Positions 1-17,410 of a stretch of DNA of 17,804 nt are shown one piece after another (the stretch's first letter is position 1; each line of letters begins with the position of its first letter). Position numbers and translations under genes: made by a program. The DNA is taken from contig DLVS01000540.1 of NCBI GenBank assembly GCA_003445095.1, positions 1 through 17,804 of the forward strand, read 5' to 3'. The stretch is from Verrucomicrobiales bacterium (GTDB taxonomy: Bacteria > Verrucomicrobiota > Verrucomicrobiia > Limisphaerales > UBA9464). The notes below the pieces were generated by a model. It was not told the DNA's origin. It was given only the letters and a program-made list of their open reading frames with translations, and did not search any database.

Positions 1-3000
1 GCCTCCCAAAGAAACAACGGTGTATTCAAGAGATCATAGTGTTTGCGCATGGCGCTTAGGTAATGGCCCCACGCGTCTCCGTGTCCCATCGGATACAGTT
101 TCATTGCGTCGTTTTCGTCGAGAAAGCCGTCCTGTGTTACGTCCGTGATCTGATAGTTCAGCGCATAGGCCACCTCGCCTTCGCCTTTGGTGAAGTTCCA
201 GAACAGGCGATTGAATATGGGGCGCCCGAGGCTTTCGTCGGTGCCCCGCAGCAACGCCAATTCCTCGTCGAGCAGCGTGGGCAACTGATTCTCGAAACAG
301 AAACGCGACGAGTTCAGGCTGCCGTGATCGAGGGTGTCGTTGCCGAAGCCGATGGTGGCATCCAGGCTGAAGCCCAGAGTCGGATCGAGCGCGTCATCCC
401 ATGCCTCGCGGCCCAGGGCAGTGTAAAAGTCCGCCAGCCGTGAAGACGCGAGCAGGATGGCCGCGTTAATGCCGCTGGTGACCGAGGGGTTTTCTGCGTC
501 CACACTTAAGTCGCGGGCGCGCTTCAATACTGTTTCGTACAGTTCGATCAGGCCCAAGTTCTCAATCACATCAACGCTAGAGTTAAGCGCAACTGGCCCT
601 ACGAAGGGGGCCCCCAGTTGCGCAATTAGACTGGCCGTCGTCGCGGGGCTGTCGTTCCGTCCGAATTCCCGGATCCGGGCCTCGTAAGGATTGACGCCAT
701 CGAGCACTCGCTTCACCCAGCCCATCGCCAACTGGGCTCGATAATCCGGACGGCCATCATTGTTCAGATCCCGGATCGATGAGTTGGCGGCCCCGGCCCA
801 AGCAGAGGAACTCTCTGAGCTCGCGTCGCGATGGTGATAGCGAACGAAAAAGAGATTGTCGGCCAGCAGCAATGCCGGGCTGCCACGCAGCTCAAGTTCA
901 CTTTGCCCGACGCCTCCTTCAGAATCCGCGAACAAGCTCCACGTCGGCGAACCATTCTCCCCCCCCGGTGGAACGTCTCCCGCTGACACGGCACCGTCCT
1001 CTTCACGATGCCACCATTCGTAAGTAAGCTGATCCACGTTCCCGCCGAAATCAGCCGTGTGCCGTAGCGTAATGTTCTCATCGAACACATTGGCTGGGAG
1101 CATCGTTTTGATCGCACCCCGGTAAAGCTGAGTGGCATCCACTTTAATGATATGCAACGTGACCGGGGCCTCACCGAGACTCTCGTGATTGTTTTCCGCG
1201 ATGGTTACATAGCCGGAAGTCAAACTGCTCTCGGGATTCAGCAGTTCCGGATTCGTGACCAGGGCAAGCCCGGGCCCGAGCGCGCGGAGGGGTTTTACCT
1301 GAGACGTCTGCCCCGGTAGCGGCTCGACTCCCACCAACCAGTCGCCGCTAGATCCGTCCACACTTGCGGGATTGCGGCTCAGGTCGAAGAGCGCGCGCAC
1401 CTTGTCGTGCCAAGTCGGGTCGGCCCCGCCAACCCGTTCCAGGACTTGAAGTTCTCTGGAGTTGAGAATGTTTGGTTCGAGGAGATAAACCGGCGGCGGT
1501 GCGGCTGTTAAATCGGAGTCACCCAGCTTGCGGTCATTGACCAACCCGCGAAGGACCAAGACGCCGGGCGCATCGGCCGCGCTCACTTTGGCCAACGGTT
1601 TGAAGAAGACCCGTCGTTGCAGGGACGGCGGAAGCTGATTGAAATACCATGTGTCGCCGTCCACGGTAATGTCTGAGCTAGCGGGACTGCGAAGATGCAC
1701 CGGCAGATTCGTGGTGGCATAGCTGATCCTGCGCTCCTCCAACGGAGCAATGATTCGCGCCATGAAATGGTCGCGATGGCTTGGCGAGCCGGAGGTATTC
1801 ATGGAGGGATTCATCGAGTCGAAGACAATCTCCCCGGCCGCGAAGCCAATAATACCCGGCAACCCGGGCGCGTCAGAGTTGTCGGCCTTGTTCTCGCCAC
1901 CCGCGTAGGTGAGTGTCTCGCCCACTTTTAAGACGGGAACTTCATCAGGCCATTCGGTGCGGTAATTCACGGCGGAGGGGGTCGCGCGCACTATTTCTGC
2001 GGGGTCAAAAACACCATAGCGGCGAAGCTCTGCTCTCGGGTGGTCAACGACGAATTCAGGAAGGAACGGAATGCAGTCACCGACTTTTTTAACGGAACTG
2101 CCAATGTCTTGGTCGAAGGGATACCAGAAATCCGGCTGGAGCCTATAATAATAGCGACCTTCAAAAGCCGAATCGCCGGAGACAGCCCAGGCAGCGCCTT
2201 TATGATCGACGAACCAGGTCCTTTGGTTCGCCGAAATGTCCTGAAAATAGCTGCCGTTGGGCGTGGCCAGCGAGTCGTTGAGACAGGGCGAAAGCCCGAT
2301 CACCAGATTCAACGGATAAGGTGCCACGACGAGTTCGCCGGCGCCCATCTCGTATTGAAATATGTAAGAGGCGCCCGTGCTGCCCGGGAGCTCAGCCGCG
2401 TAGTCGTCGACGACATGGGCTGTGCGTTGGACCTGATAAACCGCCATCTTCCAGGCTTCTTCAGGCGTCGCCGCCTGCTTGTCGAAGTACTGAACCAAGA
2501 CATAAGGATCTGAAGTGTAGTCGGTGCCGTTCAGAGGCGCCCCACGCGCCGCGATAAGTTCCCGACTAAGATTCAGGTCGTTCCGCAGCGCATAGGCCGC
2601 CGGCACGCTTCTCCCGGATAGACTGGCGTGCAGCGAGGGATAGATGCGCGCGTGTTCCTCGTTGGGATTAAATCCGGGCAATGCGCGATCCGGTTGATGA
2701 TAGACGCTAACTTGCTCATAGCGATCCGGGTCAAACTCCAGTTGCCGATTTCCGGCCGCGTCGAGCCCTTCCGAGCCCAGGCGGCTGGCAATCACAATCC
2801 TCTTCAGGTCGGTCTCCAGAGGAGTCGCGTCCGCGCTTGGCGCCACCGGCCAATCGAAACCGTAGTAGTACACCGGTCTCGCCGGCCATTCGATGTTATC
2901 ATGCTTTTCATACCAGACGACCACCAAGTCTTGCTCGGTTGGAATCCGCGGCGTTCCGGGATAGTCGAAGGTAGAATTGACCGGAATGATAGGCCCGGAG

Positions 3001-6000
3001 ACACGGTCGCGATCATAGATGCGGGCGTTATAGTTAGCCAATCGGTGCATGACATAACCGGTTCCCTTCCCAGCAGTATCAAATGCGCTCGAGAGTTTCA
3101 CGCCAATGGTGGCGCGCTGCGAAATATTCAATAGACCGATTGTGTCGTTGTTCCATAAAGTCGTATGCACAACGCGGACCTCGAGTGCCTCTCCGACCGC
3201 GCCCGTGGCGATGCCGGGAGCAGTGGAGAACAGGAGCACCGAACGGCCTCGCTGAGTGGCGGAGAACTGAGCACCCGCCGCGACGCCGTCACCCGTGGAA
3301 TAAAGGAGCCCACGAAACGCTCGGTTATCGGTGGCGCTAGGATCCAGGATTACGGCCGGGGTATTGGCAATATGGTAATAGAAATTCGGCCCCGAATACG
3401 CCTGGGACGGATCGTCCTGCCAAGGCTCACCCGGAAATCCCGAAAAGATTTGCGTCACCACCTCAACGCCAGATTGGGTCGTATTCCATTTAGCGAGAAC
3501 AATCCCCGGCCGAATAGGCAGGGCCGTCTGGGTCGCCTCGTCCCAAATGAGCATGTTGTCCGGATTGCTCCCCGGGGGGCCCTGGATGACTGCAAGTTCT
3601 TTCCACCGACCCACAGTGGCGGGCATGGGTGGTGCGGCGCTGGAGAATGACACCGTTTGACCAATGCCGGTATGAATCACATAAACGGTTTCGCCATAGT
3701 TCCAGAACACGGTTACCGGTTGGGTGAGATTGGCGACGCGCTTGACCCAATATTCGTTGTTGTCGGCTGAGCCGATGCGGAACAGGTCGAGTTCGCCGTC
3801 GAGCTGGAGATCGCTGGTCGCTGTCGTATCGATTGTGAAGTCACCATCCGCGAAGTATCCGGGCGACACGGGATTGGCATAGCGCCATCCCTTGAGGGCG
3901 ATGTCTTCATCGGATCGCAACGCCCCGAATTCAATGGAACTGCCGGCATCAAACCAGCGTTCGCCTCCATTGCTCGTCACAACCGAGCCGCTCACCTCGG
4001 CTCCGCTGCCGTCCAGCACACGCGAGACCAACAGATTGCGGAGACTCGACTCGGAATGTTGCGCGGTAACACTATATTGTTTGCTCCAGGAATAGGCGAT
4101 GGTCGCGGGTCGGGTCATCGCAAATTCCTGCACGGCCACCCGTTCCACCGGTGTGCTGATTGCGGTGGTGGTCGGTGCCGGTAGGGTCACTTCGTAGGAC
4201 TTTAATTTGTAACGGACGCCAAACGCTTGTTGATCGATCGGATAGACCACGCCATCGATCGTCGCTTGGACCTGGGTGCCCTCCGCCAGCCAGTTCGTAC
4301 CGATCAGGGGCGTTGGACTGCCTGGCGACGCCGTGGCCGGGAGTCCGGCGGTCGCGTGATCGCTGGTGATCAGCAAACGATGTTGCGTTTCCCACGCGAA
4401 GGTGATCGTCGTGTCGAGAATCAGATCCAAGGAGAGAGAGTTTCCGGCGGTGGTTCCCACTTCATTGTCTAACGTGAACCCGGTAACCTTGCGACGCGTG
4501 CCGCCGTCGTTCGCGACCTGATCCGCCACCCTCACCGTAATCGGCGTTCCCTGGAAATAGCTTTCCTCAAAGCGCGTCGTCGATTGAGCTTCGCCATTGA
4601 TGATGATCGGCTCGTAAGCCGACTCCACGACGAGCCGTGCTTGGCGCAGGAAATCGCCTTCGGAGGTGATTCCCGTGAGCCAACCCCAGGACTCCACCCT
4701 GTCTGCCGAACTTGTAGCCAGGCTGAGCTCGTTGGGAGCCTGCCCCAGCAACAGATTGGAGCCTCCGGAGCGGAACGAGCCACCCCAAAGCACTCGTTGC
4801 TGCGCAAGGGCAAAGGCCAGCAGTCTCCCTGTAAATAGATTGGGCCGGGGAACGTCGGTCGCCCGCGAGGTTGTCTTTAACCAAAGCGGCCGCAGACTTA
4901 AGTCGAATGCGCCAACGAAGTCGCTGTCGCTGAGGCTGAGCAATTCGAGATCTAAGTCTCCCACGCTCGACGACGTCGGCGAGTTTTCTCCATACACCTG
5001 GAGCGTAGTCGGCATCGGTCCGGTGACATAGACGCGATTACCGCCTCCCCGAATCCGTGTCGGATGTGTAATCAGCGAAGAGTCGGCTCGGCCATTGATA
5101 AAATAAGCGACAGCGTTATCCGAGACGTAGTCGTCCCCCCCGAGGCGGGTCAGAAAGCCCAATCGGTACGTAACGAGTGGGCCGGAAAGGTTTTTCCTTC
5201 CCGTCGCAGTGGCCGTGCCCGAAACAAACGCTTTGCCGCCAATCAACGCGAGATCGGTTCCGCGAACCTCGCGCTCCACGTCGTTGCGAGTCAAGGGCAG
5301 GGCGGCGAGATCCGTCCCCGAATCGAAGTCATTGAACGCCATCCACGCTCCTCCCGGGCTTACCTTCCCAGCGACAGGGGTCACGTAGAATGAGCTGCTG
5401 ACTGTTCGGTAAAGGACATTGTTGGCGTTGGTTACCGAGGCGCCGTTGCCCAAATTCATGAGTGCATGGACATCATTATTACCGTCGATCGCGAGCGCGA
5501 TCGTCTCTTCTGAGGTTGTTCCCGAAGCGCCGCCGAGAAGGCGCCACTGAAAAGTTCCCGCGCTATTGAGCTTCGCAACGTAAGCCGTCTTCCCGGCCGC
5601 CGGTCCTAGCGTCGCCAAGTTATCGACGGCATGAGAGTTGCCCGACTGGCGGTAAATGAACGCCAGCGCCGGTTCGCAGAATCCGCCGAAATAGACGCTG
5701 CCGTCGGGCGCGGCGACGACCGCGTTGACGTTCGCGGCGCGGCTGGCCGAAATCGTCGCGACATAGCGAATCCACTGCCGAGTTCCGGTTTTATCCAACT
5801 TGACGAGGAACCCCACCTGACGTCCTTCCTGAGAGTCGAAGTATCCGGCTACCAGAATCGCATCCGCGGTCACGGCCACATCTTTTACCTCGACTTGGCG
5901 CCTCGGCACAAACCAGGTGTAAAGGCCCGGTTGAACGGCATCGGTCACCGGAATTAGGACCCGCTGAACCCAGACCCAGCCGCCTTGTGGATCCAACTTA

Positions 6001-8239: not shown

Positions 8240-11200
8240 ATGGCGGTGAGGTCTTCCATCCGGTGTTCGAGCTGTGCCCGGCCGGTCACATCCGGTGTGG
8301 CCCAGGGACTCTGTCCTCGTTGCCTGTTGCAGGGCGCGCTCACCTTCGATTCAGCGGCTGAGGTTTCGCCAGCGGCAACGGAGACTGTCCTGCGGTACTT
8401 TGGCGATTACGAATTGCTTCACGAAATCGCCCGCGGCGGAATGGGCATTGTCTATCAAGCGCGGCAAGTGAGGTTAAATCGCCTGGTCGCACTCAAGGTC
8501 CTGGCCGCAGGGGATTTCGCCTCGGCGGAGTTCGTCGAGCGCTTTCGGAGGGAAGCCGAGGTTGCGGCCACCTTGGAGCACCCCAATATCGTGCCGATTT
8601 TCGAAGTGGGTGCGGTCGGCGGTCAGGCCTTTTTTTCGATGCGATTGATCGACGGAGGAACGCTGATCGATCACCTAAAAAAGGCAGGAGGACGTCTGTC
8701 GAATCCGGAGGCGGCGACTCTGCTCGTGACGATCGCTCGGGCAGTTCACTACGCCCACCAACGCGGGGTACTCCATCGGGATCTTAAGCCCGGCAACGTC
8801 CTGATCGATTCCCGAGCCGGGGCGATGCTCACCGACTTTGGCCTGGCCAAATTGGTCGAGCAAGAAAGCACGGTGACCCAAACTCAGGAGTTGTTGGGGA
8901 CGCCTGCCTACATGTCGCCCGAACAGGCGTCGGGCCGGACACGACTCCTCACGACCGCTGCGGATGTTTACGGCCTGGGAGCGATTCTCTACGAGCTCTT
9001 AACCGGTGAACCGCCGTTCCGCGGGGCAAGCAGCCTCGAAACCGTCCGCCAAGTCTTGGAGCACGAGCCGAAGCCACCCACGATGGTGAATCCGAAAGTG
9101 GATCGCGATCTTGAGGTAATTTGTCTAAAATGCTTGGAAAAAGAACCCGAGCGCCGTTACGGCTCAGCCGAAGCATTGGCGGACGATCTCGACCGCTGGC
9201 TCCGATGTGAGCCGATTCGCGCCCGCGCGAGTGGAACCTGGGAACGCACCGGCAAATGGATTCGACGGAATCCGCGTCGCGCGACACTGCTGGCGTCAAC
9301 CGTCGTGGCAGCCCTGGCGGCAGCAACGGGCCTTGCCGTCCTCAACGCCCGCTTGCGCGAAGCAAATTCCCGGGCGGGGGTCAGAGCCGAGCAGAATCGG
9401 CAGCACCTGGTCCAGTTTAACGTCGCCAAGGGAGTCGATCTGATGAATGACGGTGATCTCTTTGGTGCATTGCCCTGGTTTGTCGAGGCCTTGAAGCTCG
9501 ATCAGGGGATCGTCGAACAAGAGGAAATACACCGCACTCGGATCGCGGCGGTGTTGCGTCACACGCCGCGGTTGATTCAAGTGTTCACCCATGGCGGCGC
9601 CGATGCCTCGTCGTCATTCTTTAGTCCCGATGGGCGGCAAGTGTTGGTACGGCATGGCGAGGCGGGTTTTGTTCAGTTGTGGGGTGTGGAATCGGGTCAG
9701 ACCATCACCCCGCAACTTCGGCATAACGGGGTTGTCTTGCTTCGCCCCATGTTCAGCTTGGCGGGCGAGCGCATATTGACGGGCGGCCAAGAAGGCACCG
9801 CACGGCTCTGGGATGCTCGCACCGGAGAACCGATCTTGCCGCCTCTGCAACACGCGTCCGGTATGATGCTGGCCGCGTTTAGCCCGGACAATCGGCTTAT
9901 CCTCACGGCCGGCGGCGATTCCAACCTGCGGCTTTTCGATGCGAACACTGGAAGGTTGGAACGAACGGTGGCTCACACCGACGCGGTGATGGATGCGGAG
10001 TTTCGGACCGACGGGCGACAGATCTTGAGCTGTGCGCGAGATGGATCTCTGCGGCTTATTGAGACATTGAGCGGTGAGGTCCAACGGACCCTCAAGCATC
10101 CCGGCTCGAATTTCCCTCGCTGGGTGCGCTACAGCGCTGACGGCCGACGATTCATGAGCAACTCCGGGCAAGGCACCCTGGTGTGGGACACCGAGACTGG
10201 GCAGCCACTTACTCCGTTGCTCGGCCACTCCGGACTTTGGGTCTATGGCGCAACCCTCAATGCCGAGGGCAATCGGCTGCTTTCGTGGGGACGGGATGCC
10301 ACCGCGCGGCTGTGGGACGTGAGCACGAATCGGTTGAGTCTTCCGGTGTTGCGGCACGAACACGGGGTTCGCATGGCGGAGTTTAGTCCGGATGGTCGGT
10401 ACGTCGTCACCGCCAGTGACGATCAATTTGTTCGTGTTTGGGAGGTCACGACGGGTGAGCTCGCTATGGCTCCGATGCGACACGGTGGACGGGTATTTCG
10501 CGCGTCCTTTAGTCCGGACGGCCAGCGTATTGTGAGTTCGGATGCCACCACGACCAAGGTGTGGAGCATCCCCAACAACGCCGCCACGCTGACGGTGCTG
10601 GTGGAAGGCAGGCCTCGAGGCGCCATGGTCAATCGCGAAAGTAACGCGCTCGTCACGGTCGATGCCGATCGCCGCGTGCAGGCATGGAGTTTGGTCGATG
10701 GCACGGAGCGGCCCTTCCTGGGTTGGACCAATCCCGCGACCCTGCCCTCCCTGGAACGGGCCGGACGACTCGAACCGTTTCTCAGCCCGGACCTCAAAAC
10801 CGAGCTCTTTCCGTCGGCCAACGGCATCCTGGTGCGGGATCCACAGACTCATCTCGAGCTCGCACCGCCGCTCAGGCATCGAGAGGACATCGGCTGTGCG
10901 ACGATGAGTGCCGACGGTCGTTTAGTGGCCACTGGCAGCGAAGATCGGACGGCTCGGGTCTGGGACGCCAAAACCGGCTGGCCGCTGACCCCGGGACTTC
11001 GAGTCAACAATGGGGTCAATTCCGTGAAGTTCGATCCCGAAGCCCGGTGCCTGGTGACCATGAGTGGCGACAACCGAGTAACCCTGTGGAACCTGGAACC
11101 CGACCGCCGTTCCATTTCCGATCTGGAGGCATTGGCCAAGTTGCTAGCCGGTCGAAAGATCAACGCGGCCGGGGGCATGGTTGATCTGTCAGGGTCCGGG

Positions 11201-12373
11201 GAGTTTCGCGATTTATGGGAATCTCTACGCGCGGCCAACTCGGAGATTTTCAGTATCCGTCATGACGAACTCGAACAATGGAACTGGAACGACGCCCTCA
11301 ATTCGGGCGTCCCCGAACGATACGGAAACGCCGCCAAAACAACGCGTGAGCGCGTTCGACTCGCCCGCTGGTATCGGGCGAATCAACGTTGGCACGAGGC
11401 GGCCCAAGCGCTGACCCTCGGACTTCAATCGGATCCGGAATCGCCGGTACTGCACTGGGAGCGCGGGGAGTGTTTCCTCGCCGCGAAACAATTCACGTCA
11501 GCCGAGACCGACTTCGCCGCGGTGATTCAAGCCGACCCCGAGTCATCCCAGGGGTGGGCCGGACGGGCGTCGGCGCAGCTCGCTCAAGGCCGCTTCGAGG
11601 GGGCGAAATCCGACATCGAACGAGCGCTCGAAATTAAATCAGGCGACCCAGACCTGCTCGAATTGCAGGGTAGAATTCAGACCGCTCTCCGGCGCTGGGA
11701 CGAGGCGCTCGCGAGTTACGCATCGGCCCGTGCGCAACGAGCGCTGATACCGGTCGAAGAGGAACGGATCGACTTGCGGCGAATTCCTCCGCGGCGCGCT
11801 GAGGCTGGTCGCGACCACGTTGATTTGGGCACCTTTTTTAACGCGCCCTTGACACCCGGCTGGATGGTCCCGTTGCCCACCGAGGCGCGATTAGGTGGTT
11901 GGCCCGAAGGTTTCCTCGAACTTGGCGGAATTTCTTTCGAAGTCCGGGGCGTAATACAACTCGCGAGCGCCGCGTCACGCGATCGCAAAGGATCGTTTCC
12001 CGTTCGCAGTTCGGGAATCCCAATCCGACGGGCGTGTCGAGCGATTCATTTTCTGCACGGCGCTCACCTCGAAGCGTTCGCGAGCCAGGAGATCGGCGCG
12101 TACACACTGATCTATTCCGATGGCACTTCGGAACGGGTGCCGCTTGTCTTCGATCTGAATCTCCGCCACTGCTGGTCGCGCAATCTCAGTCCGCTTCCGG
12201 ACCCCAATACAGCTCTCGCCTGGAAATTTGAACGGCCGGGCTCATTACGTCCCACCACATTGTATCGCACCACGTGGGCCAACCCTCGACCGGACTCCGA
12301 AGTGGTGATGATCGACTACGAGTCGGCCATGAAGAGCTCTGGACCGTTTCTCTTGGCGATCACCCTGGAGTAG
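8240..12373 (+). CDS. membrane Ser/Thr protein kinase with WD40 and TPR repeats
   Basis: This 1377-aa Hanks-type kinase starts with a zinc-ribbon-like pair (CSSC at 9-12, CPRC at 25-28). Kinase domain, about 57-320: glycine loop ARGGMGIVY (64-72), lysine K86 in VALKVL, helix-C glutamate E105, catalytic HRDLKPGN (D181), DFG at 199-201 and SPEQA at 226-230. All key residues are present, so it should be active. One membrane helix follows (about 349-368, LLASTVVAALAAATGLAVL). Residues about 443-955 hold roughly twelve WD40 repeats ending in LWD, VWE or LWN, enough for two propellers. TPR units lie at about 1034-1160. The last 185 residues (from VDLGTFFNAPL) are an unassigned, probably beta domain. 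The repeats should sit outside the cytoplasm and sense or bind partners while the kinase faces the cytoplasm (inference from topology). It is divergent from the exported-protein operon and convergent with the sigma factor. Confidence 0.93.
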   Translation: MAVRSSIRCSSCARPVTSGVAQGLCPRCLLQGALTFDSAAEVSPAATETVLRYFGDYELLHEIARGGMGIVYQARQVRLNRLVALKVLAAGDFASAEFVERFRREAEVAATLEHPNIVPIFEVGAVGGQAFFSMRLIDGGTLIDHLKKAGGRLSNPEAATLLVTIARAVHYAHQRGVLHRDLKPGNVLIDSRAGAMLTDFGLAKLVEQESTVTQTQELLGTPAYMSPEQASGRTRLLTTAADVYGLGAILYELLTGEPPFRGASSLETVRQVLEHEPKPPTMVNPKVDRDLEVICLKCLEKEPERRYGSAEALADDLDRWLRCEPIRARASGTWERTGKWIRRNPRRATLLASTVVAALAAATGLAVLNARLREANSRAGVRAEQNRQHLVQFNVAKGVDLMNDGDLFGALPWFVEALKLDQGIVEQEEIHRTRIAAVLRHTPRLIQVFTHGGADASSSFFSPDGRQVLVRHGEAGFVQLWGVESGQTITPQLRHNGVVLLRPMFSLAGERILTGGQEGTARLWDARTGEPILPPLQHASGMMLAAFSPDNRLILTAGGDSNLRLFDANTGRLERTVAHTDAVMDAEFRTDGRQILSCARDGSLRLIETLSGEVQRTLKHPGSNFPRWVRYSADGRRFMSNSGQGTLVWDTETGQPLTPLLGHSGLWVYGATLNAEGNRLLSWGRDATARLWDVSTNRLSLPVLRHEHGVRMAEFSPDGRYVVTASDDQFVRVWEVTTGELAMAPMRHGGRVFRASFSPDGQRIVSSDATTTKVWSIPNNAATLTVLVEGRPRGAMVNRESNALVTVDADRRVQAWSLVDGTERPFLGWTNPATLPSLERAGRLEPFLSPDLKTELFPSANGILVRDPQTHLELAPPLRHREDIGCATMSADGRLVATGSEDRTARVWDAKTGWPLTPGLRVNNGVNSVKFDPEARCLVTMSGDNRVTLWNLEPDRRSISDLEALAKLLAGRKINAAGGMVDLSGSGEFRDLWESLRAANSEIFSIRHDELEQWNWNDALNSGVPERYGNAAKTTRERVRLARWYRANQRWHEAAQALTLGLQSDPESPVLHWERGECFLAAKQFTSAETDFAAVIQADPESSQGWAGRASAQLAQGRFEGAKSDIERALEIKSGDPDLLELQGRIQTALRRWDEALASYASARAQRALIPVEEERIDLRRIPPRRAEAGRDHVDLGTFFNAPLTPGWMVPLPTEARLGGWPEGFLELGGISFEVRGVIQLASAASRDRKGSFPVRSSGIPIRRACRAIHFLHGAHLEAFASQEIGAYTLIYSDGTSERVPLVFDLNLRHCWSRNLSPLPDPNTALAWKFERPGSLRPTTLYRTTWANPRPDSEVVMIDYESAMKSSGPFLLAITLE

Positions 12374-12472: not shown

Positions 12473-13225
12473 TCATTCCAACACGCTAATCAGATACCGA
12501 ATCTCCGTGTCCACTTCGAGAGCCGTTGCCGCGTTCAGCGTGTGGGCAATTTCCTCGCGCATCAGTTCTTGCCATCGTTGACGTAGCCGATGAATTGCCG
12601 ACTTGACGGCCTGCTCGGTCATACCCAGTTGCCGCGCGGCGGCGGCGTAGGTGTGCTCGGATGACTCGCCCGTCAGAAACGGTTTCAACACTTCGAATCG
12701 CTTGACGCTCGCGCCGTCGAATTCGCTCCTTAGTCGTTCCAGCACTCTGGCCAAGACGGCCTCGGCCCAGCGTTTTTCGTAGAGCCGTTCCGGGGTCAGC
12801 GAGTCATCGGGATCGAGAAAGCCAGCTTCGTGTTCTCGAGCCTGCTCCAATGAAATGAACTCAGTTCGTCCGCCCCGCCTTTGCGCGTGGTCTCGGTTCC
12901 ATTGGTTGCTCAGAAAATGATTCATCGAACTGAGCAGGAACGTTCGGAACCGTCCGCGCGCGCGATCGGCCGCCGCAAGGTAATTTTTGGCCAGGACCTG
13001 GGCGAAGTACGCCTGCGTGAGGTCCTCCGCTTGGTGCAAAGTATAGCCGCGATACCTCAGGTACGCGAAGAGCGGGTACCAGTAGGCGCGGCAAAGCGTT
13101 TCTAAGGCTTGGGCGGCCTGTTCTGATTCCGGCCCACCGGCCAGCATCACGAGACTCCAATGAGTCGTGCGGAAATCGCGGGGCTGGGGCGCGTTCTCCG
13201 CCTCGGTTGCAGCAGATTCTAGCAT
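12473..13225 (-). CDS. ECF-like RNA polymerase sigma factor
   Basis: This 250-aa protein has the two conserved parts of a group 4 (ECF) sigma factor. Region 2, about residues 45-115, contains the typical YWYPLFAYLRYRG and AEDLTQAYFAQVL, which would bind the -10 element and core polymerase. Region 4, about 155-225, ends in the helix-turn-helix AAARQLGMTEQAVKSAIHRL, which would bind the -35 element. It is longer than a common ECF factor (about 180-200 aa): there is an N-terminal extension with FRTTHWSLVMLAGG, a long linker and a C-terminal tail ending EVDTEIRYLISVLE. I recall the TTHWSLV opening in planctomycete and verrucomicrobial ECF factors that lie next to Ser/Thr kinases. The WD40 kinase ends 99 bp away on the opposite strand. 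No anti-sigma gene is visible. Control through the kinase is a reasonable inference. Confidence 0.93.
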   Translation of the reverse strand: MLESAATEAENAPQPRDFRTTHWSLVMLAGGPESEQAAQALETLCRAYWYPLFAYLRYRGYTLHQAEDLTQAYFAQVLAKNYLAAADRARGRFRTFLLSSMNHFLSNQWNRDHAQRRGGRTEFISLEQAREHEAGFLDPDDSLTPERLYEKRWAEAVLARVLERLRSEFDGASVKRFEVLKPFLTGESSEHTYAAAARQLGMTEQAVKSAIHRLRQRWQELMREEIAHTLNAATALEVDTEIRYLISVLE

Positions 13226-13453: not shown

Positions 13454-13714
13454 GACGTCGAAGTCACCGGTCCGCCGTGCAAAGGCCGACGCTATCGAGA
13501 AGAGACGCTCGAAGTGAGGTGGCGAGGCCGCAACATCACCGAAGTACTGAAACTCTCGCTCGAAGAAGGCGTGAAGTTTTTCGCCGAAGAACGCGGAATA
13601 TTGCGCCAATTGGAATTCCGGCCCGAACTGGGCCTGGGTTATCTGGAACTGACGATGCTTTCGCGTGGCGAAGCCCAACGCGTCAAGTTGGCGGCCGAGT
13701 GGCGCCGCCTTGGC
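13454..13714 (+). pseudogene. uvrA: UvrA fragment (excinuclease ABC subunit A remnant)
   Basis: This frame encodes about 87 residues that align by eye with the middle of UvrA, the DNA-damage-recognising ATPase of nucleotide excision repair. It reads CKGRRYREETLEVRWRGRN, then ITEVLKLSLEEGVKFF, then LGLGYLELTMLSRGEAQRVK. In intact UvrA these are the second half of a zinc-binding segment, the linker and the ABC signature (normally LGQ..TTLSGGEAQRVKLA). Here several residues before the signature are missing and SGGEAQR has become SRGEAQR. Similarity stops just after KLAAEW, where the Walker B part (ILDEPTTGLH) should follow. There is no start codon upstream in frame (a TGA lies at 13439-13441), so this is a non-functional scrap. 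It marks the start of the scrambled region. Confidence 0.72.
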
Positions 13715-13721
13715 CGCATCG

Positions 13722-14483
13722 TCAATCATTTCCAGGGTCGTGACCGGGGGCACCTGGCTGGTGGGTATGCGTGACCGTGTGTCCCCATCCATTAAGACAG
13801 GGAAACGCGGCGGCTTCCCAATACTCCGGCTTTCCGGAAGCCCAGGCGTCGAGGAAAATGATCCGCCCACTGCATACCGCCTCGAGCTTAACGAAGTGAT
13901 GAAAGGTTCTTAGCGTCCAGTGCTGGCGCGCGCGGATTTTCTGTACGCGCCAACACCTCCACGTGCGAGTCACCAGAGCAGCCCAAGCGACCTGTTGCCA
14001 GTCTGCGCAATTGCCGACCCGATGAAAGCCGAGTCCCGGATCCGAATATCCAGGGTCATTGCCCGCTTGATAACCGTCAGCCCGCGCGTTGTTCACCGCA
14101 GCGGTATAGAGTTGAAGCATCGTTTGAAACTCAGCCTCTTCCTCGGATGGAGTGCAGCATCCGCTGGTCGGCGAGCTCGAAGACCCAGAGTTCGGTGTCG
14201 AGTGAGGAGATTCGATCCGTTCACCCTCGCAACGGCAGGAGATCTTCGTGCTAAAGCGGACCTCTATGTACTCGTCCGTCTCTTCGAGCAACTCCGCCTG
14301 GGTACCCTGCAAATGCCCCACACATCCACCTTTGGAGCATAATCCGTCCATGCACCAGCTATCGGCTTGAGCCTTGATCCAGGGCACGAAGGCGCCGAGC
14401 CCATTTTGGCCTTCCTTTTTGGCAATTCGTGTCCTTTCGGAAGAGAAGGTAATTTCGGGCAAATCGCGACAAAGACTTGGCAT
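13722..14483 (-). CDS. hypothetical protein with possible Cys-His-Asp catalytic triad
   Basis: This is a 253-aa protein from the ATG at 14481-14483, with AGAGG about 6 nt upstream. A TTG six bases earlier is an alternative start. I do not recognise the family. Residues 44-85 are cysteine-rich (CMDGLCSKGGC, then ISCRC), a Ser/Pro-rich linker with CC follows at about 92-115, and residues about 135-225 look like a compact domain. That domain contains GNCADWQQ (C159), HHFVKL (H195/H196) and IIFLDAWASG (D212), in the order and setting used by papain/transglutaminase-fold enzymes. Those include several effector domains at the ends of polymorphic toxins. No signal peptide is visible. The last 20 or so residues (TVTHTHQPGAPG) run into the UvrA junction and may be acquired sequence. 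It stands alone in the scrambled region, so it could be the detached tip of a longer toxin-like protein. Enzyme and toxin roles are inference. Confidence 0.55.
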   Translation of the reverse strand: MPSLCRDLPEITFSSERTRIAKKEGQNGLGAFVPWIKAQADSWCMDGLCSKGGCVGHLQGTQAELLEETDEYIEVRFSTKISCRCEGERIESPHSTPNSGSSSSPTSGCCTPSEEEAEFQTMLQLYTAAVNNARADGYQAGNDPGYSDPGLGFHRVGNCADWQQVAWAALVTRTWRCWRVQKIRARQHWTLRTFHHFVKLEAVCSGRIIFLDAWASGKPEYWEAAAFPCLNGWGHTVTHTHQPGAPGHDPGND

Positions 14484-14829
14484 CAACAACCTCTGGGAAT
14501 TGGCAGCACTAAATCAAGGCGCTGCCCAAGGGGACAGCTCAAAGTTTTTCGCCAATCACGCCCGCGCGATGCTGAACTCCGAGGCGCGCGCCCGGCCCTG
14601 CTCCCTGTCCCTGTCCGATGACAATCGGCGACGAACCCGCGACGGGTCGGCCTGCATCTCGCCGATAGTTGATTGTTATGGTGGAGGCGCGGAGTTGAAA
14701 CCGCGCAGAAACATCAAAAACCCTCGATTTACTGGGCTTTTGGCAAATCCGCCATGAAACCCGATGCAAGCAAATACTGTCAAAATTGTGTGAAGTGGTG
14801 GAAGGGCCCGAGCATGCGTCGGGCGGAGG
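14484..14829. other. non-coding accessory stretch
   Basis: No convincing gene is visible on either strand. Open frames here have poor codon patterns and no recognisable protein. On the minus strand the hypothetical protein's frame is closed by a TGA about 30 bp before its start. The only recognisable element is the degenerate copy of the tmRNA 3' end at 14679-14705. Confidence 0.5.
14679..14705 (-). repeat. degenerate copy of the tmRNA 3' end (att-like site)
   Basis: On the plus strand TGGTGGAGGCG (14679-14689) is identical to the first 11 bases of the tmRNA 3' end at 17057-17067, including the CCA end. After one base here against three in ssrA, GGAGTTGAA (14691-14699) is again identical to 17071-17079. 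The copy is in the same orientation as ssrA and still folds a T-arm-like hairpin (GCGCGG/CCGCGC), though two bases have been lost and the loop is one base longer. Integrases that target tRNA or tmRNA genes leave such displaced 3' ends at the far side of the inserted element. I read this as the distal attachment site of a small island; that reading is inference. Confidence 0.6.
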
Positions 14830-15267
14830 TTACTTGGGCGAAGACTTTGCCTTTGCTTGTTCAAGCTGCTCTCCTAGCTTCAGAGCTTCAAGTCGTAGTG
14901 TGTCTGCCACTGTCCTGAACCAATCCAAGCGACGCGCACGGGATTCAAGTTCCTTGCCCCTGGCCTCCTCATTCACTTCCTTGCCACTTTCCTTTCCATT
15001 TTCCACCGAGGCCTCCATGACCATCAGGTCGAATTTGAAGCTGGCCTCAGCTATTTCTGTTTTCAGGCGTTCGTACTGGCGGAGCAAAACCGACAGGTCA
15101 ATTTCGAGGAGACGCACCTCAACACTCGTAGCCTTGGGCTCTGCGTCGCCAGCCACGAGTGGTTGTGCAAACAGTGCAACAAGGCAAATTGCTGGGAGCA
15201 GCTTGAGTTTCACGGGTTCGAATCTTCTCAGAAGCCGCAAGGTTTGAGCAATAAGGATAACGAACAT
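14830..15267 (-). CDS. small exported coiled-coil protein
   Basis: The protein is about 145 aa from the ATG at 15265-15267. A GTG at 15211-15213 would give about 127 aa and a cleaner signal peptide (VKLKLLPAICLVALFAQPLVAG, cut likely after VAG). A GTG at 15310-15312 is also in frame but lacks a spaced ribosome site. Behind the signal is an almost wholly helical, charged segment with heptad-like spacing (VEVRLLEIDLSVLLRQYERL, then LDWFRTVADTLRLEALKL), ending in a Lys-rich tail. It is therefore probably an exported, self-associating coiled-coil protein. I do not recognise a family. It lies inside the stretch bounded by the two tmRNA 3' ends and reads away from the three small membrane-protein genes. 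Confidence 0.6.
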   Translation of the reverse strand: MFVILIAQTLRLLRRFEPVKLKLLPAICLVALFAQPLVAGDAEPKATSVEVRLLEIDLSVLLRQYERLKTEIAEASFKFDLMVMEASVENGKESGKEVNEEARGKELESRARRLDWFRTVADTLRLEALKLGEQLEQAKAKSSPK

Positions 15268-15474
15268 ACTCCGAGGTCTATCCTGGCCGCTTTTCGTAGA
15301 AAAGGCCGGCACCCCTCGCGAATGCCGGGCCCACTCAATCCAAACTCAGACCGGTAGGAATGGAGCGACGGCGCGACGGCTGGTCAACGGGGGAGCGTAT
15401 CGCGAGATTTGGGGAGGTTGCTTTCCGCTGGACATTGTCCGAGCCCGTTGCCTGACTCCTTCCAGACTCGGACT

Positions 15475-15738
15475 ATGATCCTCGCCCAAGTCGTCTTCTT
15501 CACCGAGACGCCAGTTCCTTGGCGTGAACGGTTTGACTCGCGAATCGATGACGAGGCTGGCTTTTGGCTCACACTGGCGTTTGCAGTGATCGCGGCCGTG
15601 GCTGTTTTTATCGTGGCCTGCGCCCGGGCCAGGAAAGATCACTCAAGCTTCGGCCGCCGCCGAGGCTCGAGACGACCAGCCCTACTTCCGTCCCGCCGCC
15701 CGGCGAAAGAGGTCCGGCCGTTCAACCCAGGGTGGTAG
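15475..15738 (+). CDS. small single-pass membrane protein with Arg-rich tail
   Basis: This is an 87-aa protein from the ATG at 15475. The frame extends back to a TTG at 15409, but the added residues look unlike coding sequence. One membrane helix spans about residues 30-50 (FWLTLAFAVIAAVAVFIVAC). It is followed by a strongly basic tail (RARK, RRRGSRR, SRRP), so the tail should face the cytoplasm and the first 29 residues should lie outside. The family is unknown. It stops one base before the next gene starts, which suggests co-translation as the first of three small membrane-protein genes. The ribosome site before the ATG is weak. Confidence 0.5.
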   Translation: MILAQVVFFTETPVPWRERFDSRIDDEAGFWLTLAFAVIAAVAVFIVACARARKDHSSFGRRRGSRRPALLPSRRPAKEVRPFNPGW

Positions 15739-15739
15739 C

Positions 15740-16075
15740 ATGGACATTCTGATTTTGATTCTCGTCGGACTGGGTTGGCTCGTCGTGATCTGCACGCGCG
15801 AATCCAAAGACCGACAAGACACTGAGGCGCTCCGGCTCCGTGAAGCCGCGCCGATGGACACACCGGAGCCGCCAGCGCCAACTTACAATCCCGAATCCCG
15901 AGCCGAAGCGATCCGTAGGAACTTGGACCGGCGGGAAGCCGGGGTAGGTGTCATTCTGCCGGCGGCACCAAAGGCGCACCGACCGCACGCGCGAGAGGCG
16001 CCGACGCGCAACGCCGGTGTCCTAGATCACTTTCAGCTCGACTCGTTCCTAACCCAAGGCATGACACCACTGTGA
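15740..16075 (+). CDS. small membrane-anchored proline-rich protein
   Basis: This is a 111-aa protein whose N-terminus is a membrane anchor (MDILILILVGLGWLVVIC), followed by a charged and proline-rich soluble part (DTPEPPAPTYNP, then helical SRAEAIRRNLDRREAG). AGGGTGG sits just before the ATG. It starts one base after the stop of the upstream small gene, and the downstream gene overlaps its last four bases, so it is the middle gene of a coupled set. No lipobox or catalytic motif is visible. I do not recognise the family. An adaptor or envelope-linked role is only a guess. Confidence 0.55.
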   Translation: MDILILILVGLGWLVVICTRESKDRQDTEALRLREAAPMDTPEPPAPTYNPESRAEAIRRNLDRREAGVGVILPAAPKAHRPHAREAPTRNAGVLDHFQLDSFLTQGMTPL

Positions 16076-16422
16076 AGACGAAAACGACAGAACTGATCGG
16101 TGCAATTTGCGCGGTGATAAGCGCTGGTGCAGCGGTAATAGCGTGCGTCCAGGCAAGCGCCGCGAAGAGCGCCGCTATTGAAGTGAACGCAAAATTCGAG
16201 TCGCTCAAAGTACAACTTACCCGCATCGAGAAATCCCCGTTTTTCAATCTATTAGGTGGCAGCATCACCATTCCGCCTGGGTGCGGAGGGGAGGGCGGGT
16301 CTGGCGCGGCAGGCGGTGGTGGGGGTGGAAGCGTTTTTGGAGACGGTGGTAAGGGCGGTCAGGGCGGGATTGATTTATCGGGCGGCGTCACGCCAACCAA
16401 TCTGGTATCGCCACGCCCTTGA
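16072..16422 (+). CDS. small membrane protein with glycine-rich tail
   Basis: This 116-aa protein starts at a GTG that overlaps the stop of the upstream gene (GTGA), a common sign of translational coupling. A membrane helix spans about residues 8-28 (LIGAICAVISAGAAVIACVQ). A short helical, possibly coiled-coil stretch follows at 29-54 (AIEVNAKFESLKVQLTRIEK). Residues about 62-105 are then glycine-rich (GEGGSGAAGGGGGG, GDGGKGGQGG). The glycine run may be a flexible or aggregating extracellular tail. I know no family for it. It ends convergently with, and 35 bp inside, the small minus-strand gene at 16388. It is probably the last gene of the small membrane-protein operon. Confidence 0.5.
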   Translation: MKTKTTELIGAICAVISAGAAVIACVQASAAKSAAIEVNAKFESLKVQLTRIEKSPFFNLLGGSITIPPGCGGEGGSGAAGGGGGGSVFGDGGKGGQGGIDLSGGVTPTNLVSPRP

Positions 16423-16612
16423 GCTTCCAGCACGGCGGCGGCTGGCGGGCGCGGACTGACTCGCGCAGTTCGTCGAGTCTCGCCGCGGCGCGGGCAATCC
16501 TGGCTTCGCAGGCGGAATGCATCTTGGGATCTGCAGTTCCGGTCATCGCGACGTGAGCCGATTCGATGGCGCTCACCAGTCCGTGAAGTTCCGCGCGCTC
16601 GCTCCCGTTCAT
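16388..16612 (-). CDS. short helical hypothetical protein
   Basis: This is a 74-aa protein from the ATG at 16610-16612; a TTG at 16631-16633 is an alternative. The first two thirds are predicted helical and charged (SERAELHGLVSAIESAHVAM, then ACEARIARAAARLDELRES), and the end is CWKLKGVAIPDWLA. Codon pattern and composition look protein-like, but no family is recognised. Its 3' end overlaps the glycine-rich gene by 35 bp tail to tail. There is no clear ribosome site, so it is a tentative gene. Confidence 0.38.
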   Translation of the reverse strand: MNGSERAELHGLVSAIESAHVAMTGTADPKMHSACEARIARAAARLDELRESVRARQPPPCWKLKGVAIPDWLA

Positions 16613-16690
16613 GAGTCGAAACTCTGAGGGCAAGGACGCAAAAACCGGGGCATCCCGGCTTAAAGTTTGCTCATGTGCTCCGACTCGAAC

Positions 16691-16987
16691 TCAACCCTCG
16701 AGCGGATGGGTAGCGGAGTCATATTCCTCGCGCTCTTGCGGCACCAAGCTGGGCGAATCGGGGCGCCCCAAGGCGTAGGCGTGGGCAACTTGGGCCCAGA
16801 CTTCCTTGGCTTTCTCCCGGCTCCCGAAATCCCGAACCCGCTGGCGGCCGCCTGGCAAGACGTACACCAGCCGAAAAACTTGGTAGGAGCGTCCAGCAAC
16901 GACTTTCTGCGCGTGGTAAAGGGTTGCGGTAAGCGATCCGATCCGAAGCTTTTCCGCGCTATTTGCACGCTTCCGGTTGCTTATTTC
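16691..16987 (-). pseudogene. integrase N-terminal domain remnant
   Basis: The minus-strand frame between the TAA at 16988-16990 and the TGA at 16691-16693 encodes 98 residues with no ATG, GTG or TTG near its beginning. The central part reads SLTATLYHAQKVVAGRSYQV, FRLVYVLPGGRQRVRDFGSR and EKAKEVWAQVAHAYALGRPD. This strand-strand-helix pattern (Y..F-L.Y...G-R-R..F, EA..A, A.G) matches what I remember of the N-terminal arm domain of verrucomicrobial tyrosine recombinases. The core-binding and catalytic domains (R...HxxR...Y) are absent. It lies 70 bp beyond the 3' end of ssrA, where an ssrA-targeting integrase gene is expected. I take it as the decayed start of that gene; a short real gene with an unusual start is less likely. 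Confidence 0.5.
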
Positions 16988-17056
16988 TTATTTCGGCCGG
17001 AGTGAAGCAAAAGCGGGGAAAATAACGCGAAAATCTGCGTCAGTACTTGATGCGGT

Positions 17057-17410
17057 TGGTGGAGGCGGGGGGAGTTGAACCCCCGTCCCTGACTAGCTCA
17101 AATCCAACGACTACATGCTTAGCCAGCCTGAATTTTCTGCGAAATCGTCACGGGCCGACTTCGAGTGACTTCGCCTAGCTCGCATGAACTTTCTCGGCTG
17201 CCAGCGCGCGAACTCCGCCGACGACCATGCCTGCTAATGGCGTTCGTTCTCAGTAGCAGGTGTTCCGAGACGAACGTCGAGCCGATTAGGCTGCGAGTGC
17301 CAACTCTTCGTTAGCAGTTAATGTTTTGACCCGGGGTTTTACGAGGCCAACGGATCGTCCTCGGCATGCCGTCGGAAGCGAGATCTTCAGGTCGAAACCA
17401 GTACGCCCCC
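17057..17410 (-). ncRNA. ssrA: transfer-messenger RNA (tmRNA)
   Basis: This 354-nt tmRNA rescues stalled ribosomes by acting as a tRNA-Ala and then as an mRNA. The 5' end (GGGGGCGTACTGGTTTCGAC) pairs with the 3' acceptor strand CGCCTCC in a perfect seven-pair stem with one G-U, followed by ACCA. The T-arm is GGGGG-TTCAACT-CCCCC. Further landmarks are GTTGGCCTCGTAAAA before the tag and CTAAGCATGTAGTC before the T-arm, both close to the E. coli counterparts. The tag is on the same strand inside the molecule. It is the common one-piece form. The gene stands alone; a degenerate copy of its 3' end lies 2.4 kb away and a remnant resembling an integrase directly beyond its end. Confidence 0.96.
17286..17315 (-). 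other. tmRNA tag reading frame, ANEELALAA
   Basis: The resume codon is GCT after ATTAACT. The frame then reads ANEELALAA and stops at TAA. The final ALAA is the usual protease (ClpXP type) recognition end. The resume position is inferred from the match to the E. coli layout (GCA AAC GAC...), and the frame holds to the stop. Confidence 0.85.

What the first reader, a model, noticed from the sequence alone, without database searches (positions are those of the whole stretch)
14679..17410. Decayed mini-island inserted at the tmRNA gene
The tmRNA 3' end (17057 onward) is partly repeated at 14679-14705 in the same orientation, with 11 and 9 identical bases separated by a 2-base deletion. An integrase-like remnant lies directly beyond the intact gene. 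Between them are small genes I cannot assign. This is the geometry left by an ssrA-targeting integrase: the element restores the gene end and pushes the old end outward. The element would be about 2.4 kb, very small, and its cargo does not resemble usual phage genes.
Basis: partly seen in the sequence, partly recalled or inferred. Interest (0 to 1): 0.72.

Follow-up and report, generated by a model that had tools for sequence, protein, structure and literature searches.

The report
Decayed small island at tmRNA gene
A short stretch of DNA beside an essential RNA gene of a bacterium is the worn-down remains of a mobile element that once inserted itself at the end of that gene, a well-known kind of event caught here in an unusually small form.

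Summary
The tmRNA gene lies at 17057-17410(-). A degenerate direct copy of its 3' end lies at 14679-14705, 2,378 bases downstream, and outscores every match in 263 kb of relatives' DNA and nearly all shuffles (1 of 1000 and 0 of 400 reach it). The remnant at 16694-16975(-) is the N-terminal part of a tyrosine integrase; its closest match (65% identity) is an intact integrase at a tRNA-Ser gene in a verrucomicrobial genome, in a 9.75 kb island with a 34-nt end repeat (32 identical). In 15 of 41 relatives' ssrA loci, matches to this integrase family begin 62-108 nt after the gene (82 nt in the window). Four of the 41 carry a further ssrA 3' end 1.9-4.7 kb away; in three of the four no integrase of this family was detected. 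The window's distal copy reads GGTTTC where genes read GGGTTC, as do three relatives' distal copies. Protein-database searches for three of its five ORFs found only the window's own proteins. No close relative was available for the empty-site test. Known kind of event, new member, modest interest.

The parts
17057..17410 (-). tmRNA gene ssrA, intact, tag ANEELALAA
17057..17079 (-). proximal att segment: T-loop TTCAACT to the 3' end of ssrA (restored gene end)
   Evidence: identity with distal copies begins at TTC in the window and in most relatives compared; coordinates
16976..17056 (-). leader between gene end and integrase remnant; resembles the leader of the G316 tRNA-Ser element (GCATCAAGTACTGACG / GCATCAAGGACTTACG)
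   Evidence: score 23, 4 of 2000 mononucleotide shuffles as high
16694..16975 (-). N-terminal remnant (94 residues) of a tyrosine recombinase; no ATG/GTG/TTG start giving 60 aa or more in this frame, in-frame stop after LEG, catalytic part absent
   Evidence: 65% identity over 69 aa to an intact frame in G316, 41% to the ssrA-adjacent integrase of G315; frame:
16388..16633 (-). small ORF (81 aa), codon-position GC gene-like (my judgement); two weak hits among 313 genomes
16072..16422 (+). small ORF (116 aa), hydrophobic N-terminus and glycine-rich tail; only its own sequence found
15740..16075 (+). small ORF (111 aa), hydrophobic N-terminus; only its own sequence found
15475..15738 (+). small ORF (ATG inside listed ORF 15409-15738), one hydrophobic stretch; adjoins the next two in a row; scanned against Pfam, PHROGs and PADLOC only
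14830..15312 (-). small ORF (160 aa as listed; the database's version starts at an in-frame GTG and is 127 aa), hydrophobic N-terminus and charged tail; only its own sequence found
14679..14705 (-). distal att segment: displaced, degenerate copy of the ssrA 3' end

Best explanation
The stretch 14679-17079 is what is left of a site-specific mobile element that recombined into the T-loop/3' end of ssrA through its own tyrosine integrase. The element supplied the gene end that is now part of ssrA and pushed the former end out to 14679. Later the integrase gene lost everything after its N-terminal part and the displaced end lost two bases, leaving a 2.38 kb immobile island (a CIME-like remnant) with a few small ORFs of unknown role. 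Shown: the repeat, the integrase remnant, matching anatomy in relatives. Inferred: direction of displacement, order of decay, and that the small ORFs came with the element.
For: Repeat beyond chance. Integrase remnant homologous to integrases placed the same way at ssrA (15 of 41 relatives, tblastn matches beginning 62-108 nt after the gene, same direction; window 82 nt) and, closest, at tRNA-Ser(GGA) in G316, 65% identity, intact. That tRNA-Ser island has a copy of its gene end 9.75 kb away, 32 of 34 nt identical, and the leader after the gene resembles the window's. Distal copies in the window, G316 tRNA-Ser, G001 (second), G002 and G279 read TTTC where the gene reads GTTC, so identity to the gene starts at the same base (5 of 7 distal copies lined up). 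ssrA 3'-end copies 1.9, 2.0, 2.8 and 4.7 kb away in G001, G002, G279 and G305. Motif not dispersed in the order (0 of 320).
Against: No empty-site relative. The distal copy is short and imperfect; 1 of 1000 shuffles of 4 kb reaches its score. The leader control is only moderately strong (4 of 2000). 2 of 7 distal copies differ at the junction: the first G001 copy reads ATTC, and G305 shares only a 15-nt repeat whose score (30) is little above background. The distal copy fits another family allele (CGCGG stem, score 39) better than the gene beside it (32). The nearest integrase homologue sits at tRNA-Ser, not ssrA. No clear GC step marks the boundaries.
Confidence: 0.86

Rival explanations
1. 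The island was never much larger: it is a mini-island moved in trans by an integrase of another element using the same att sites, like the islands without detected integrase in G001, G002 and G279.
For: ssrA 3'-end copies 1.9-2.8 kb from the gene with no integrase of this family detected in 3 of 41 relatives, one of them with two islands in tandem.
Against: The window keeps the 5' part of an integrase gene at the expected place, which points to decay of a self-encoded integrase; movement in trans is untested.
Confidence: 0.15
2. The integrase remnant is real, but its element's true distal end is elsewhere or lost, and the 14679 copy is a chance resemblance.
For: The copy is imperfect; 1 of 1000 shuffles of 4 kb reaches its score.
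Against: Not reached in 263,070 bases of real relatives' DNA, either orientation; orientation, end point and junction base match relatives' distal copies.
Confidence: 0.07
3. The 2.35 kb between the repeats is mainly later insertion or ordinary host DNA within the remains of a larger element, so the small ORFs are not cargo.
For: Three ORFs searched in a 5.8-billion protein set found only themselves and a fourth had two weak hits in 313 genomes, so their origin is open.
Against: No second insertion was seen; orphan genes are common in small islands (general knowledge, not tested).
Confidence: 0.2

Closest known systems
tDNA/tmRNA-targeting genomic islands as mapped by Islander (PMC4383910; abstract and passages seen)
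   Same: Intact gene plus displaced 3' fragment in direct orientation mark the ends; tyrosine integrase next to the gene; T-loop/junction crossover class; damaged displaced fragments known
   Different: Islander's search requires an integrase ORF and 2-200 kb; the window keeps only an N-terminal piece
CIMEs, cis-mobilizable elements (definition seen in passages of PMC5704250)
   Different: The window's distal att is degenerate, so its function is doubtful; never shown to move; whether it ever had transfer genes is unknown
Dehalococcoides ssrA islands (PMC3146451; passages seen)
   Same: ssrA hotspot, direct repeats of the gene's 3' end, tandem islands, 15 islands without integration modules, T-loop crossover
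   Different: Those use a serine recombinase and carry reductive dehalogenase genes; here a tyrosine recombinase and different cargo

Membership tests
tmRNA-targeting tyrosine-integrase genomic island | Intact tmRNA gene at one end | tested here: met
tmRNA-targeting tyrosine-integrase genomic island | Displaced copy of the gene's 3' end, direct orientation, downstream | tested here: met
   degenerate but above background
tmRNA-targeting tyrosine-integrase genomic island | Integrase gene of a tyrosine family adjacent to the gene, at least as a remnant | tested here: met
   homologues match Pfam Phage_integrase above cut-off
tmRNA-targeting tyrosine-integrase genomic island | Intact integrase ORF (Islander's filter for a mapped island, not for a remnant) | tested here: not met
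   94 residues then stop; no Pfam match in the 70-aa core; hence filed as a remnant
tmRNA-targeting tyrosine-integrase genomic island | Empty site in a close relative | not testable with these tools
   no close genome; nearest ssrA 85%
CIME | Integration genes lost | tested here: met
CIME | attL and attR retained | tested here: inconclusive
   proximal intact, distal with a 2-base deletion and substitutions
CIME | Can be mobilised in trans or by accretion | not testable with these tools
   needs an experiment

The most novel reading that the evidence does not exclude
A verrucomicrobial family uses the end of ssrA as a docking site for very small islands, often without their own integrase, that swap toxin-antitoxin-like cassettes (an AbiEii-like nucleotidyltransferase; an XRE-M78 protein beside one I read by eye as PIN-like) and are moved in trans by full integrases at ssrA or tRNA genes; the window would be one such island carrying a new cassette of small membrane proteins.
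Probability: 0.15. Interest if true: 0.5.

Novelty: new member of a known kind. Interest (0 to 1): 0.3.

Why it matters
It adds a case of a tmRNA-gene island near the lower end of the size range. It also points to a recurrent ssrA hotspot in one verrucomicrobial family (18 of 41 loci with an integrase match or a second gene end), including islands of 2-3 kb without a detected integrase, which a finder that requires an integrase (Islander) would reject. In the search listings I saw no title on ssrA islands in Verrucomicrobia (15 listed of 100; 11 of 11); I did not read those papers for it, and most subscription journals are not held.

Tried and rejected
Dispersed-repeat explanation: motif absent from 320 genomes of the order and from 7 genomes with a slightly looser pattern. 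Hairpin or RNA-element reading of the perfect GCGCGG/CCGCGC arms at 14687-14706: Rfam gave only tmRNA; not pursued, so the palindrome is unexplained. Phage origin of the integrase: with the G316 tRNA-Ser integrase as query, 36 pattern matches in viral contigs but no relative. Cargo function: nothing credible from Pfam, PHROGs or PADLOC. Weak matches that I set aside by judgement as low-complexity, coiled-coil or short: phrog_37200 E=0.0056 to ORF 15409-15738, phrog_27215 0.023, phrog_32779 0.048, Avs3b 0.0032 to ORF 14830-15312, ZorA 0.042 to ORF 16072-16422, Pfam HR1 0.22. The flank ORF 13722-14489 has 0 matches in 50 family genomes, where the tool warns that an empty answer shows nothing. 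Two repeat hits above the printing threshold were not counted as ssrA ends: G318 (a repeated hairpin after the gene) and G283 (score 28, within background). The CGCGG-allele fit was considered as proof that the old host gene end differed; rejected as proof because part of that match lies on the element side of the junction. On checking I withdrew a first reading that ORF 14830-15312 has a near-identical relative: the 99% entry is the window's own protein read from an in-frame GTG. I also corrected the G305 integrase from 'two frames' to one frame with an in-frame stop.

Full report
What is there. The window's own genome is not held; that it is verrucomicrobial is inferred from its tmRNA: a tag pattern from it matched 7 genome contigs, all from MAGs titled as Verrucomicrobia, Verrucomicrobiales or (one) Akkermansia. 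A 354-nt tmRNA gene lies at 17057-17410 on the minus strand. A search of 320 genomes of the order of one of those MAGs (G007) found ssrA matches in 258; the best were 85, 83, 81 and 81% identical, so there is no close relative.

The repeat. The gene's 3' end recurs at 14679-14705, same strand, 2,378 bases further on, ending on the same last base. Its score of 32 was reached by 0 of 400 shuffles of the 17 kb downstream and by 1 of 1000 shuffles of 4 kb. In 263,070 bases downstream of 41 relatives' ssrA, with known repeats masked, the best were 27 (direct) and 26 (inverted). With the commoner family allele (CGCGG T-stem) as query the window copy scores 39 against a background best of 28. The motif is in 0 of 320 genomes at up to 2 mismatches.

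The integrase remnant. Minus-strand frame 16975-16694 reads 94 residues and stops; no ATG, GTG or TTG gives 60 aa or more in this frame. Among the 50 genomes of the family of G316, 7 match the 70-residue core at E<=0.001. The best, G316 contig 114, is 65% identical in a frame of 424 codons without stops, directly after a tRNA-Ser(GGA) gene. The next, G315 (41%), lies directly after ssrA. Homologous integrases match Pfam Phage_integrase (E 3.7e-9 and 1.9e-8); the 70-residue piece itself matches no Pfam or PHROGs model.

Comparison at ssrA. I examined 41 of the 50 family genomes. Of the other nine, seven had no ssrA match, one had a partial match (G302) and one match was not fetched (G313). In 15 of 41 a tblastn match to this integrase family begins 62-108 nt after the gene, in the gene's direction. 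One of the 15 (G005) is only an N-terminal piece ending in a stop, like the window's; at least G294, G315 and G293 are cut by contig ends. In 4 of 41 a further ssrA 3' end follows: G001 at 1.9 kb (and another about 4.7 kb from the gene), G002 at 2.0 kb, G279 at 2.8 kb, and G305 at 4.7 kb, the last by a 15-nt exact repeat (score 30) only a little above background. Together 18 of 41. Downstream sequence ran from 126 to 15,295 bases and the repeat scan to 12 kb, longer for G003 and G305; several integrase-bearing loci, G003 with 21.7 kb among them, showed no distal copy, and in short contigs absence says little.

Cargo of relatives. G001's first island carries an AbiEii-like gene (Pfam 2.6e-5, above cut-off); its second an XRE-M78 gene beside one that I read as PIN-like by eye (no Pfam support). 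G305 has an integrase frame split by an in-frame stop, an excisionase-like HTH protein (PHROGs 2.5e-10) and two genes matching PADLOC candidates PDC-M21B and PDC-M05A (4.5e-6, 3.4e-5; AbiEii only 0.019).

The junction. The tRNA-Ser element in G316 spans about 9.75 kb and ends in a copy of the tRNA end, 32 of 34 nt identical. For four other integrases of this family at tRNA genes (L069-L072) no end copy was found in the 1.4-6.4 kb available. Of 7 distal copies lined up, 5 (window, G316 tRNA-Ser, G001 second, G002, G279) have TTTC where the gene has GTTC; four of these read GGTTTC and G279 reads CCTTTC. The first G001 copy has ATTC, and G305 shares only 15 nt. So identity begins at the same base of the T-loop in most, as expected for a common crossover region. 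The window's leader after the gene resembles the G316 tRNA-Ser leader (14 of 16 identical at its start; 4 of 2000 shuffles score as high overall).

Cargo of the window. Five small ORFs, three in a row on the plus strand, each with a hydrophobic stretch by inspection. Protein searches for three returned only the window's own proteins. A fourth, 16388-16633, had two weak hits (E=4.5e-4 and 8.9e-4) in 313 genomes. The fifth, 15475-15738, was scanned only against family libraries. None of the five matched the relatives' ssrA neighbourhoods. Codon-position GC of 14830-15312, 15475-15738, 15740-16075 and 16388-16633 looks gene-like to me, that of 16072-16422 does not. Their role is unknown and their arrival with the element is inferred.

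Mechanism and decay. The best reading is integration of a tyrosine-integrase element at the ssrA T-loop, restoration of the gene end by the element, displacement of the old end, then loss of most of the integrase and damage to the displaced end. Islander reports islands with damaged displaced tDNA fragments (PMC4383910, passages). Elements that have lost integration and transfer genes but kept att sites are called CIMEs (PMC5704250, passages). ssrA islands without integration modules are described in Dehalococcoides (PMC3146451, passages), where the recombinase is of the serine family.

Verdict. Observation confirmed and interpretation supported, without the empty-site test. The kind is known; small size, truncated integrase and orphan ORFs make it a modestly interesting member, and the ssrA hotspot in this family is the more useful lead.

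Noticed in passing
window 13514-13774 (+): Fragment of an excinuclease UvrA gene (about 65 of 924 model positions; TIGR00630 E=4.6e-13, PDB UvrA chains E down to 2.7e-16), apparently a pseudogene remnant just outside the island.
   Followed up: partly
L057 (G001) and L054 (G002), downstream of ssrA: Islands of about 2-3 kb with no integrase of this family detected; G001 has three ssrA 3' ends in a row; three distal junctions share CC(A/G)TCCTGG before the repeat. In G002 part of the left-end ORF recurs after the second copy.
   Followed up: partly
L066/L096 (G316 contig 114): 9.75 kb island at tRNA-Ser(GGA) with intact integrase, an AAA_25 ATPase gene and an end repeat of 32 of 34 identical bases.
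   Followed up: partly
L077 (G305) 694-5388: 4.7 kb ssrA island with an integrase frame interrupted by a stop, an excisionase-like gene, a second recombinase-like piece (by eye) and two genes matching PADLOC candidates.
   Followed up: partly
window 14687-14706: The distal copy contains a perfect 6-bp inverted repeat GCGCGG/CCGCGC around AGTTGAAA; unexplained.
   Followed up: no
window 8240-12373 (+): Large protein kinase with WD40 repeats and a TPR match, with an ECF-like sigma factor gene at 12473-13225 on the opposite strand.
   Followed up: no
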